Positions 6,895-23,622 of a stretch of 64,000 nucleotides of DNA are shown here, in pieces; position 1 is the stretch's first letter, and each line of letters opens with the position of its first letter. The notes beneath the pieces were generated by a model. That model saw only the letters and a program-made list of their open reading frames with translations, ran no database searches and was not told the origin of the DNA. The DNA comes from Sandaracinus amylolyticus (GTDB lineage: Bacteria > Myxococcota_A > Polyangia > Polyangiales > Sandaracinaceae). The translations under genes were made by a program, and so were the position numbers. The stretch is from NCBI RefSeq assembly GCF_000737325.1, contig NZ_CP011125.1, positions 1,736,001 through 1,800,000 on the forward strand, given 5' to 3'.

Positions 6895-8250
6895 TCACCG
6901 CTCGCTGCGGAGAACTTCCTCCGCCGCCCGCTCGCCCGATCGAATCGCGCCTTCGATGTACCCGTTCCACACCGTCGCGGTCTCGGTGCCCGCCCAGTGC
7001 ACCCGTCCGATCGGCGCGCGCAGCGCCTTGCCCGAGCTCGTCCACACGCCGGGCGGGAAGTACCCCGCGTAACACCCGCGGCTCCACTCGTCCTCGGTCC
7101 AGCTCTTGTCGACGTAGTGCACGGGCAGCCCCGCGCGCACTCCGAAGCAGCGCGCGAAACACGCGAGCACCGCGTCGCGTCGCTCGCCGCGCGGTCGATC
7201 GCTCCACTCGCGCGCCGCTGCGCCCTCGATGAACCCGAGCAGCACGCCCGGCGTGCCCTCGGGCGCCGACGCGTCGAACTGCACGTGCGCGGGCGCGAGA
7301 TCGGTGATCGCGTGGCCCGACAGACCTTCCTCGCGCCACCACGCGCGCTCGTAGATCGCGATGCACTTGATCACCGCGCCCTGGGGCACGCGCTGCGTCA
7401 GCTGATCACGCGCGCTCGGCATCGCTGGCGCATACCGCAGTCGCCCCGCGAGCATCGGCGGCAGCGCCACGATCACGCGCGAGCCCGAGAACGCCGCGTC
7501 GTCGCTGCGCACCACGACACCGTCGCGGTCGTGCTCGATCGCGCGCACCGGCGTCGACAGGCGCAGCGTGCCCTCGGGCAGCTTCGCGGCGAGCGCCTCC
7601 GCGAGGCGCTGCATGCCACCCACCACGCGATCCTGCTGCGCGCCGTTCTCGCTCGAGAGCAGCCGATCGAGCCCACCGCCCGAGCGGATGTAGAAGAGCA
7701 CGTGCAGCAGCGACAGGTCCGCGGGATCCGCCGCGAACACGGTCTCCATCGCGTAGCGCAGCAGCTTGCGCGCGCCCTCGGTCGGCGCGTGGGTGCGGAG
7801 GAACGTGTCGAGCGTCGTCGCGTCCCACTCGCTCGCTTGTTTCGCCTCCCAGGGCGCGTCGAGCGGCACTTCCTTCGCGAGCTGATCGAGGCGGAACCAC
7901 ACCCATCCGACCGCGGCGAGCGACGCCGCGTCGACGCGCGGGACGGTGCCGCGGAAGAGCCGTCGTTTGCCGCCGAAGTGCAGCACGTTGTGGCCCTCGA
8001 CGTGCTGGCGATGGGTCGCGAGGCCGAGCTCCTTCGCGAGCGCGAGCGCGCGATCCTGCGTCGGCCCGAGCCACTGCCCGCCGAGATCGATCGCGGTGCC
8101 GTGGTGGGTCTCGGTGTAGACGCGACCGCCGACGCGATCGCGCGCCTCGAGCACCGCGACGCGACGCCCCGCGGCGCAGAGACGACGCGCCGCGGAGAGC
8201 CCGGCGAAGCCCGCGCCGACGACGATGACGTCCGACTCGAATGGCTGCAT
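6895..8250 (-). CDS. Flavin monoamine oxidase family FAD-dependent oxidoreductase
   Basis: 451 residues from ATG. The N-terminal FAD motif is V-I-V-V-G-A-G-F-A-G-L, followed by the V-L-E-A-R-D-R-V-G-G-R block typical of amine oxidases. The C-terminal W-A-G-T-E-T-A and G-Y-I-E-G-A-I-R-S-G segments complete the FAD site. Length and motifs match bacterial flavin monoamine oxidases (PF01593), which oxidise amines to imines with release of hydrogen peroxide. There is no signal peptide. The gene starts about 36 bp from the edge of the 21-bp repeat array, so its promoter must lie within or beside that array. It is 57 bp upstream of the beta-lactamase-fold gene on the same strand. Confidence 0.85.
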   Translation of the reverse strand: MQPFESDVIVVGAGFAGLSAARRLCAAGRRVAVLEARDRVGGRVYTETHHGTAIDLGGQWLGPTQDRALALAKELGLATHRQHVEGHNVLHFGGKRRLFRGTVPRVDAASLAAVGWVWFRLDQLAKEVPLDAPWEAKQASEWDATTLDTFLRTHAPTEGARKLLRYAMETVFAADPADLSLLHVLFYIRSGGGLDRLLSSENGAQQDRVVGGMQRLAEALAAKLPEGTLRLSTPVRAIEHDRDGVVVRSDDAAFSGSRVIVALPPMLAGRLRYAPAMPSARDQLTQRVPQGAVIKCIAIYERAWWREEGLSGHAITDLAPAHVQFDASAPEGTPGVLLGFIEGAAAREWSDRPRGERRDAVLACFARCFGVRAGLPVHYVDKSWTEDEWSRGCYAGYFPPGVWTSSGKALRAPIGRVHWAGTETATVWNGYIEGAIRSGERAAEEVLRSER

Positions 8251-8285: not shown

Positions 8286-8759
8286 CGCTCCTCGGCGCGG
8301 CGCGGCGATCCCTCGGTGCCGCGATCGTGCTCCTCGGTGCGGCGATCGCGATCCCTCGGTCCGGCGTCGCACTCCCTCGCTGCGGAAATTCGATCCCTCG
8401 CTGGGACGATTTCGATCCGCGGTCGGCGTTTTTCGATCCTCGGCGCGACGATTCGGTCCCTCGATGGCGAGCGCGCCTCCCCGGGTCGCCCGAGACGATC
8501 CCCGGCGGGGATCGCGTCGTGCGAAGTGGGGATCGCGCTGGATTTGGCGGGTATCGCGGGCGCGACGCGCGGGCGCTTCGTGATCGCCGCCGGGGATCGA
8601 GTGCTCGCGGGCGGGGATCGGAATTTCGTCGCCGGGGATCGGAATTTCGTCGCCGGGGATCGAATCACCGTCGCTGGGGATCGAGCCCTCGCGAGCGGGG
8701 ATCGACGCGCCCGGCGTGGGGATCGAGCGCGCGAGGGTGGGGATCGTCGAATGCCCGCG
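8286..8759. repeat. 21-bp-period inverted repeat array filling a divergent intergenic region
   Basis: This 554-bp gap between divergently transcribed genes (8250 and 8805) is almost entirely repeats. On the left, CCTCG cores begin at 8290, 8311, 8332, 8354, 8375, 8396, 8417 (as CCGCG), 8438 and 8459, then two diverged copies at 8480 and 8501; most are preceded by CGATC. On the right, GGGGATCG begins at 8507, 8528, 8549 (GGGTATCG), about 8571 (degenerate), 8592, 8613, 8634, 8655, 8676, 8697, 8718 and 8739. The step is 21 bp nearly everywhere. The right arm is the reverse complement of the left: AAATT plus CGATCCC occurs left, GGGGATCG plus GAATTT occurs right. The centre is the palindrome CGATCCCC-GGC-GGGGATCG at 8496-8514. 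Units at 8613 and 8634 are identical. Because 21 is a multiple of 3, several frames stay open, but no frame looks like a real protein. Confidence 0.9.
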
Positions 8760-8804: not shown

Positions 8805-9446
8805 GTGCGCGACGAGACCGTCCTGACGCTGGGCTTCGGCGTCCTCGCGATCGCGATCGGCGCGTTCGTGTGGCCCATCCGGCGGCGTCACCTCCTGACG
8901 CGCGAGGGCGCGCGCGCCGCCGGGCACTACCTGCCGCTCTTCGACGCGCGCGGCGTCTGGCTCTGGCTCAACGGGCCGGTGACGTTCGTGCTCGGCCTCG
9001 GGCTGCTCGCGAACGGCGCGCTCCGCGCGCGCGCCGAGCACGACGCGGCGCGCATCGAGCGCGAGCTGCGGCAGATCGTGATCGCGTGCGAGCCGGGGCG
9101 CATCGAGCTGCGCAACCTCGGCGACGCGCCGCGCGTCCTCGAGGTCGACGCGCGCGCCGATCACCCGCACCGCGATCCCGGGCCGCGCCTGCGCATCGAG
9201 CCCGAAGGCGCGATCACGCTGCCGCCCGGCACGTCGCGCTCGCTCGCGCTGAGCACCGTGACGCGCGGCGCGTGCGGCACCGAGCCGGGCGGCGATCACG
9301 TCACGCCGTGGGAGATGTGCGACGGAGCCGAGCTCGAGCTCGCGATCCGCGACCCGCACGGCGACGAGGTCGCGCGCGGCGCGAGCGGCTGCGCGTTCCC
9401 GGGGCGCGCGCGCGTGCTCCAGCTCGGCCCCGACTTCCTCTGGTGA
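8805..9446 (+). CDS. Hypothetical membrane protein with exported C-terminal domain
   Basis: 213 residues from a GTG start. One hydrophobic segment lies at residues 5-22 and a second near 50-67. They are followed by a coiled Ala/Arg/Glu segment and a beta-rich soluble domain of about 130 residues that contains three Cys. No family is recognised. It is 4 bp upstream of the next gene, so the two are almost surely cotranscribed, and both look like small inner-membrane proteins. Its promoter lies in or beside the 21-bp repeat array that ends about 45 bp upstream. Confidence 0.6.
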   Translation: MRDETVLTLGFGVLAIAIGAFVWPIRRRHLLTREGARAAGHYLPLFDARGVWLWLNGPVTFVLGLGLLANGALRARAEHDAARIERELRQIVIACEPGRIELRNLGDAPRVLEVDARADHPHRDPGPRLRIEPEGAITLPPGTSRSLALSTVTRGACGTEPGGDHVTPWEMCDGAELELAIRDPHGDEVARGASGCAFPGRARVLQLGPDFLW

Positions 9447-9450
9447 GCGA

Positions 9451-10005
9451 ATGGCGGACGTGACGTTCGAGCGTGCTGCGATCCGGAAGCGAGGCGAGTG
9501 GACCTACGCGGTCCCCGGCGCGCTCGCGATGTTCTTCGCGCTCGCGTTCGTGCTCGGCGTCTTCGACGCGAACGTGCGCGCGATGTTGCCCGAGGTGCTC
9601 GCGCTCTCGGGCGTGCTCGCGCTCGCGTGCGCGTTCCTCGCGTGGCTCGCGCGCGGCCGGCTGCGCAGCGTGGTGCAGGTGGGGCGCGATCGCGCGGGCG
9701 CGTTCGTGCGGATCGCCGGCGAGCGCGAGGTGCGGGCGCCCCTGCGGTATCGCGTCGGCTGGTTCCACGAGCCGGTCTCGTCGACCGTGCTCCCCGTGCT
9801 CTGGGTCGAGGTGCGCGGCGACGACGGACCCGCGATCACGATGCGGCTCACGATGGGCGCGATCCACCGCCCGCCCGCGGACTGGCCCCCGGGCCCGCCG
9901 ATCTCGCAGCCGACGCACGAGCTCGGCGGGATCGTCGACTACGCGCGCGCGCTCGACGCGATCGGCGCGACGCGCGCGACGAGCTGGCTCGACGTCGCGC
10001 GCTGA
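9451..10005 (+). CDS. Hypothetical membrane protein
   Basis: 184 residues from ATG, 4 bp after the previous stop. Two hydrophobic helices (about residues 22-42 and 50-66) form a hairpin. A soluble beta-rich domain of about 115 residues follows, with a P-P-A-D-W-P-P-G-P-P segment near residue 145. The two-helix plus beta-domain layout resembles that of the upstream gene, suggesting that the pair act together at the membrane. No known family is recognised and no function is proposed. Confidence 0.6.
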   Translation: MADVTFERAAIRKRGEWTYAVPGALAMFFALAFVLGVFDANVRAMLPEVLALSGVLALACAFLAWLARGRLRSVVQVGRDRAGAFVRIAGEREVRAPLRYRVGWFHEPVSSTVLPVLWVEVRGDDGPAITMRLTMGAIHRPPADWPPGPPISQPTHELGGIVDYARALDAIGATRATSWLDVAR

Positions 10006-23494: not shown

Positions 23495-23506
23495 CTCGCG
23501 TTCGCG

Positions 23507-23622
23507 CCAACACTTCGCCGCCGTCACGCGGCGAACGAGCCGACACTTCGCCGCGGTCAGGCGGCGAACGAGCCAACACTTCGCCGCCGTCAGGCGGCGA
23601 ACGAGCCAACACTTCGCGTCAG
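23507..23622. repeat. 33-bp tandem repeat (3.5 copies), each a hairpin
   Basis: Copies begin at 23507, 23540 and 23573, with a partial copy at 23606. Each unit contains arms TTCGCCGCC and GGCGGCGAA around a four-base loop (GTCA; the first copy reads GTCAC with a base change), so every full unit can fold into a 9-bp stem. Copies differ by only one or two bases. No spacers separate them, so this is not a CRISPR array. It lies between the rhs terminator hairpin and the nitrilase-fold gene, ending about 33 bp before the latter's start codon. Confidence 0.9.

What the first reader, a model, noticed from the sequence alone, without database searches (positions are those of the whole stretch)
8286..8759. 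A 23-unit, 21-bp-period repeat array with inverted arms around a perfect centre, filling a divergent promoter region
Seen directly: about 11 units in one orientation (CGATCCCTCG type) and about 12 in the other (GGGGATCG type) step at 21 bp and meet at the palindrome CGATCCCC-GGC-GGGGATCG (8496-8514). The array takes up nearly all of the 554 bp between a flavin amine oxidase gene and a two-gene membrane unit. 21 bp is two helical turns, so every GGGGATCG core faces the same side of the DNA. That is what one expects of a cooperative protein-binding platform, a nucleoid or regulatory site, or a large DNA or RNA fold. Units differ except for the fixed core, which suggests selection on the core rather than recent slippage. 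I know of no described element of this form.
Basis: partly seen in the sequence, partly recalled or inferred. Interest (0 to 1): 0.82.

Follow-up and report, generated by a model that had tools for sequence, protein, structure and literature searches.

The report
Inverted 21-bp DNA arrays and partner gene
The repeat block is real and belongs to a family of evolutionarily maintained DNA arrays, found across myxobacteria, that usually sit in front of one gene of unknown function and also occur alone elsewhere in the same genomes; they are probably a docking platform for that gene's protein.

Summary
Confirmed. The window holds 23 units stepping by 21 bp (20-22), 11 in one orientation and 12 in the other, meeting at CGATCCCC-GGC-GGGGATCG; 0 of 1000 shuffles come near it. 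It is not a local slippage relic. The same genome has two more arrays of this build, and the congener keeps array A at the orthologous site. One own array (C) lies upstream of an uncharacterised gene ("gene C", about 250 aa, all-helical). Following that gene gave the key result: of 57 distinct sequences upstream of gene-C homologues across Myxococcota, 39 have 21 bp as the best period (4 more 22 bp, 3 more 20 bp). The 21-bp lag wins clearly in 32/57 against 1/78 control upstream regions. Cores differ by lineage, but where both arms were detected polarity was always the same (C-rich left, G-rich right, 24/24). In Polyangium the 10-bp core is almost invariant between species while the 11-bp spacer is free. 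Arrays lacking gene C nearby exist too. In Paraliomyxa gene-linked and solitary arrays both have a 22-bp period, pointing to one trans-acting factor. Most likely: a cooperative nucleoprotein platform bound by the gene-C protein, autoregulatory plus a few remote sites. Binding itself is inferred, not shown.

The parts
8286..8503 (-). Left arm of array A: 11 units (read on - strand as RGGGATCG-type cores), steps 20-22 bp
8496..8514 (.). Dyad centre CGATCCCC-GGC-GGGGATCG where the two arms meet
   Evidence: equivalent centres in arrays B, C, the congener and other genera
8507..8759 (+). Right arm of array A: 12 units, core GGGGATCG, 21-bp step (one 22-bp step, one decayed unit at 8570)
6895..8250 (-). 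Flavin amine oxidase gene, left neighbour (Pfam PF01593, E 1.8e-81)
8805..9446 (+). Putative membrane-protein gene, right neighbour; ortholog 89% identical in the congener next to the same array
9451..10005 (+). Second gene of the two-gene membrane unit

Best explanation
The array is one of a small set of cis-acting DNA sites on which many copies of one protein assemble side by side, one per 21-bp unit (two helical turns), spreading both ways from a dyad centre. The protein is most likely the product of gene C (own genome 9,246,141-9,246,893, minus strand). Its gene carries such an array directly upstream, where assembly would autoregulate it; arrays A and B would be its remote sites, used for local gene control and/or chromosome organisation. 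Shown: the arrays, their architecture, cross-species conservation, selection on the core, gene-C linkage, and solitary copies that share core and period with the gene-linked copy. Inferred: that the gene-C protein binds them, cooperativity, and what binding achieves.
For: Array, and non-chance status. Two further same-build arrays in the genome. Same site and polarity in the congener with spacers turned over. Gene linkage: period 21 is best in 39/57 distinct gene-C upstream regions (22 in 4, 20 in 3), clear margin in 32/57 against 1/78 controls from the same loci. No other gene is shared by these neighbourhoods beyond within-genus synteny. Selection: Polyangium orthologous arrays keep unit phases 0-3 (28/28) and 6-9 (27/28) invariant while phases 11-20 are 15/69 and the upstream flank 2/34. 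Polarity C-left/G-right in 24/24 arrays with both arms detected, not all independent. Cores are lineage-specific but shared between gene-linked and solitary arrays; in Paraliomyxa both have a 22-bp period. Genome-level co-occurrence of gene C with CCCC-CTC arrays: 12 of 16 array genomes against 20 of 168 others, Fisher p about 1e-7, uncorrected for phylogeny. The gene-C product is predicted as an all-helical, internally duplicated protein (pLDDT 88.8; halves align at hhalign E 9e-5), and the core itself looks like two similar 4-bp half-sites (CCCC, CTCC).
Against: No binding data exist. The gene-C protein matches no known DNA-binding family or solved fold. Array B is absent at the orthologous place in the congener, so solitary sites are not all maintained. 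One genome (G102) has a 21-bp array but no gene C at E 1e-20 (it is 91% complete). Several diverged homologues (for example L155, L156, L159) show no clear array. Array-protein co-divergence is significant but cannot be separated from shared ancestry.
Confidence: 0.58

Rival explanations
1. The arrays are bound by a different, unlinked protein (a nucleoid-associated or global regulator); gene C is only its most strongly conserved target.
For: Solitary arrays occur beside unrelated genes in every orientation and even inside an open reading frame, which fits a chromosome-structuring protein. The gene-C product has no recognised DNA-binding domain.
Against: Cores and even the period change from lineage to lineage and, in the own genome, between the two gene-C paralogues. 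A conserved global factor should keep one site; a co-diverging linked gene explains this better.
Confidence: 0.2
2. The arrays act as RNA: transcribed leaders or small RNAs in which C-rich and G-rich arms pair, or a repeated protein-binding RNA.
For: The arms are complementary core to core around the centre. In Polyangium the region between array and gene C contains an invariant hairpin over the ribosome-binding site.
Against: Arms are very unequal in many loci (9 units against 2), spacers do not pair, and the covariation term is about zero. No Rfam match. Arrays sit between divergent, co-directional and convergent genes alike.
Confidence: 0.1
3. The arrays are non-functional or selfish tandem repeats that spread and are homogenised by slippage and gene conversion, with gene C a hotspot or carrier.
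For: Two identical neighbouring units in the window (8613, 8634); spacers turned over between species; array B not conserved.
Against: Core-versus-spacer constraint in positionally conserved arrays, fixed polarity, helical period, and retention upstream of the same gene across families.
Confidence: 0.07

Closest known systems
Omega (RHH ParB) and parS heptad arrays of plasmid pSM19035 (PMC9499535)
   Same: Non-palindromic short units in runs, several arrays per replicon, located over the promoters of the binder's own gene and other genes; low affinity for one unit, so several units are needed; roles in both regulation and partition.
   Different: Units are 7 bp, contiguous, 7-10 per site; the binder is a ribbon-helix-helix protein with a ParA partner; plasmid-borne. 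Here units are 21 bp with an 11-bp free spacer around one dyad centre, on chromosomes, with an unrelated helical protein and no linked ParA seen.
KfrA and its repetitive operator on plasmid RA3 (PMC7783346)
   Same: An alpha-helical oligomerising protein bound to direct repeats (three one way, two the other) in front of its own gene; autoregulation plus a maintenance role.
   Different: Five 9-bp repeats only, a single operator, a long coiled-coil tail with an N-terminal HTH. The gene-C protein is compact and internally duplicated; no relation was detected.
BldC cooperative head-to-tail multimers on direct repeats (PMC5859096)
   Same: Asymmetric units bound head to tail by variable numbers of protomers, forming DNA-protein filaments; a developmental regulator in a large-genome bacterium.
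   Different: MerR-like winged helix, about 9-bp repeats, no inverted arms around a centre described, characterised sites of 2-4 repeats rather than 11-23.
NCBIfam PQLLE family (NF052641)
   Same: 24 of 37 gene-C proteins show a weak hit (best E about 7e-7); a true PQLLE protein (L247) also has a 21/42-bp periodic array directly upstream.
   Different: Scores (28.6-29 bits) are far below the curated cut-off of 80, so gene C is at most a relative, not a member. The family has no known function.

Membership tests
Arrayed-operator system of the omega/parS or KfrA type (binder gene with its own repeat array) | Repeat array upstream of one gene family, retained across species | tested here: met
   39/57 upstream regions with best period 21, clear margin 32/57 vs 1/78 controls
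Arrayed-operator system of the omega/parS or KfrA type (binder gene with its own repeat array) | Further copies of the array elsewhere in the same genome with the same core and period | tested here: met
   Own arrays A, B, C; Polyangium several loci; Paraliomyxa solitary 22-bp array
Arrayed-operator system of the omega/parS or KfrA type (binder gene with its own repeat array) | The linked protein binds the array | not testable with these tools
   Needs EMSA, footprinting or ChIP
Omega/parS pSM19035 partition system | RHH ParB protein with a linked ParA ATPase | tested here: not met
   Gene-C product is predicted all-helical with no Pfam hit; no conserved second gene in the neighbourhoods
BldC/MerR-like regulators | Winged-helix MerR-type DNA-binding domain | tested here: inconclusive
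   No such Pfam hit in 37 members; predicted model is all-helical; no solved-fold match stands out
PQLLE family NF052641 | Score at or above the curated cut-off (80 bits) | tested here: not met
   28.6-29 bits for gene C
CRISPR array | Near-identical repeats of roughly 21-48 bp separated by unique spacers of similar size, in one orientation | tested here: not met
   8-10-bp core in a 21-bp period, two orientations around a centre
Structured RNA element | Covarying base pairs or an Rfam match | tested here: not met
   Covariation term +0.64; no Rfam family at gathering threshold; only sub-threshold plant miRNA noise

The most novel reading that the evidence does not exclude
A previously undescribed two-part chromosomal system of myxobacteria: an internally duplicated helical protein of unknown fold and its co-diverging 21/22-bp arrays. 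The protein would nucleate at a dyad and polymerise both ways in helical register at a handful of chromosomal sites, acting as a filament-type chromosome organiser or silencer rather than an ordinary repressor.
Probability: 0.3. Interest if true: 0.92.

Novelty: new variant of a known kind. Interest (0 to 1): 0.8.

Why it matters
It links a large, conserved, unannotated DNA element to a conserved, unannotated protein family across a phylum known for huge genomes and multicellular development, and it turns both into one testable system. The lineage-by-lineage change of core sequence and even of period (21 to 22 bp), in step between gene-linked and solitary arrays, would make it a natural series for studying how a protein and a repetitive DNA site co-diverge.

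Tried and rejected
RNA hairpin or ncRNA: Rfam negative, no covariation. Heptapeptide-coding repeat: frame broken by 20/22-bp steps in the window; in one Polyangium locus the array does lie in frame in a TonB-like Pro-rich linker, so coding overlap is possible but not general. Divergent-promoter element: contexts are mixed. Shine-Dalgarno mimicry (GGAGGGGATC resembles GGAGGTGATC): rejected because the third G of the core is almost never the T that pairing would need (column counts). First attempt at a 3-unit DNA alignment slipped by one unit and was replaced. Six BLAST hits in the own genome proved to be chance matches in what reads as coding sequence. Plasmid and virus carriage: gene C was not found in the plasmid or viral collections searched. 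Fold comparison: best Z 8.4 (a long-helix BAR-type protein) for the full model and 5.9 for the core model, both in the noise range for helical proteins. PQLLE search of 379 Myxococcota genomes: over the cut-off in one genome only. Paper searches for such repeats in myxobacteria or for PQLLE found nothing relevant.

Full report
OBSERVATION. The 554 bp between the amine-oxidase start (8250, minus) and the membrane-protein start (8805, plus) are almost filled by 23 units. Eleven units read CGATCCC-type on the plus strand (8286-8503, steps 20-22 bp) and twelve read GGGGATCG-type (8507-8746, step 21, one 22). They meet at CGATCCCC-GGC-GGGGATCG, 8496-8514. Ten of twelve right-arm cores are exact; the left arm is looser. 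In 1000 dinucleotide-preserving shuffles the best chain scores were 6.7 and 6.0, against 34.8 and 14.3 observed.

SAME GENOME. The window is part of a single 10,327,335-bp chromosome. The length fits the published 10.33-Mb Sandaracinus amylolyticus DSM 53668 genome (PMC5010890); the identification is inference from size. Pattern, BLAST and profile searches find two further arrays of the same build, B (6,773,550-6,773,890) and C (about 9,246,960-9,247,400). Both have CGATCCC units on the left, GGGATCG units on the right and a similar centre. B lies between two plus-strand genes and C between two minus-strand genes, so the divergent-promoter setting of A is not the rule.

CONGENER. The other well-assembled genome of the genus (G008) has the ortholog of the 8805 gene (89% identity). 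In the matching intergenic space it has an array with the same polarity, period and similar length; the flanks align but the spacers do not. The array has thus been kept while its units turned over. Array C is also present in G008 upstream of the same gene. Array B is not: a 3.1-kb gene stands in that interval instead.

GENE C. The gene next to array C (own genome 9,246,141-9,246,893, minus) had no Pfam hit over threshold, no PHROG, no PDB sequence match, and only a sub-threshold hit to the function-less NCBIfam PQLLE family. In Polyangium (family Polyangiaceae) the arrays found by pattern search included one upstream of the homologue of the same gene. This prompted a direct test. Homologues were collected from 32 of 184 genomes of the order and from 38 loci of GTDB species; the named ones are myxobacterial, some are MAGs filed only as Deltaproteobacteria or Proteobacteria. 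For 57 distinct 600-bp upstream sequences the best self-similarity lag between 12 and 40 was 21 in 39 cases, 22 in 4 and 20 in 3. Lag 21 beat every other lag (20-22 apart) by more than 5 matches in 32/57, against 1/78 control upstream regions taken from the same loci. No other neighbour gene is shared across families.

ARRAY ANATOMY ACROSS SPECIES. Cores are lineage-specific: GGGGATCG in Sandaracinus, CCCCnGCTCC (complementary strand) in Polyangium, CCCCCACCTCG at 22 bp in Paraliomyxa, and others. Many reduce to CCCC-nn-CTC. Where both arms were detected, the C-rich arm was always on the left and the G-rich arm on the right (24/24, not all independent). In Polyangium, orthologous nine-unit arrays align unit by unit between species: phases 0-3 are invariant in 28/28 columns, phases 6-9 in 27/28, phases 11-20 in only 15/69, and the upstream flank in 2/34. 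This is direct evidence of selection on a 10-bp core with an 11-bp free spacer.

SOLITARY ARRAYS. Besides the gene-linked copy, genomes carry arrays away from gene C: A and B here, several in each Polyangium (after a HlyD-like gene, between convergent genes, and within the Pro-rich linker of a TonB-like reading frame; these gene names are read from sequence, not from a family search), and at least one in Paraliomyxa. The Paraliomyxa solitary array has the same core and the same 22-bp period as its gene-linked arrays. A period that changes together at unlinked sites is best explained by one trans-acting binder. Genomes with CCCC-CTC arrays strongly tend to have gene C (12/16 against 20/168, p about 1e-7, not corrected for phylogeny; an array genome was counted when it had at least 3 matches and more than its reversed control).

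THE PROTEIN. AlphaFold2 on the trimmed family (34 sequences) gives an all-helical model, mean pLDDT 88.8, pTM 0.53, with the order of helices repeated in the two halves. Profile comparison of the halves supports an internal duplication (collinear over 98 columns, E 9e-5). No solved fold stands out. Inference: a two-lobed protein could contact the two similar half-sites (CCCC and CTCC) of a unit, and neighbouring protomers two turns apart would stack on one DNA face.

MECHANISM. Best reading: cooperative assembly of gene-C protein on the arrays, spreading outward from the dyad; autoregulation at its own array, and local control or chromosome organisation at solitary ones. The presence of an array inside a reading frame and between convergent genes favours a structural over a purely operator role for the solitary sites. 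Known systems that work in a comparable way are omega/parS of pSM19035 (PMC9499535), KfrA of RA3 (PMC7783346) and BldC (PMC5859096). The omega/parS defining features (RHH protein, ParA partner) were tested and not met; for BldC and KfrA there is functional analogy only. RNA-level explanations fail on covariation and Rfam.

LIMITS. All evidence is comparative. Homologues are not phylogenetically independent. Some gene calls come from a simple codon-usage gene finder.

Noticed in passing
L117, L118, L120, L121, L122 (Polyangium), last 50 bp before gene C: An invariant inverted repeat CGGGAACTnCCT...AGGGAGGTTCC pairs over the ribosome-binding site of gene C, with CCCC in its loop: possible translational control of gene C.
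   Followed up: partly
L247 1252-1460 (G278:C79): A true PQLLE-family protein in a lower-GC myxobacterial genome also has a 21/42-bp periodic, partly palindromic array directly upstream; neighbours look like conflict-system genes.
   Followed up: partly
L106 3616-4683, L098 3566-4663: In Polyangium a nine-unit array lies in frame inside the proline-rich linker of a TonB-like gene, so a DNA array has become coding sequence.
   Followed up: partly
L092 3542-4095 and L093 3651-4161 (G080): Two 500-550-bp, 25-27-unit, 21-bp arrays in one orientation (GGGGATCGACGATCGTCGAAC type) in a genome without a gene-C hit at E 1e-20; possibly a different array type.
   Followed up: no
L244 1945-5076 (G008): A 3.1-kb gene stands in the congener where array B stands in the window's genome; which state is ancestral is unknown.
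   Followed up: partly
L260 1426-1656 (G102): Solitary 21-bp GGGG array in a 91%-complete genome with no gene-C homologue found at E 1e-20.
   Followed up: no
window 23506-23617: 3.4 copies of a 33-bp, internally palindromic tandem repeat (GCCAACACTTCGCCGCCGTCAGGCGGCGAACGA), 93% matches.
   Followed up: no
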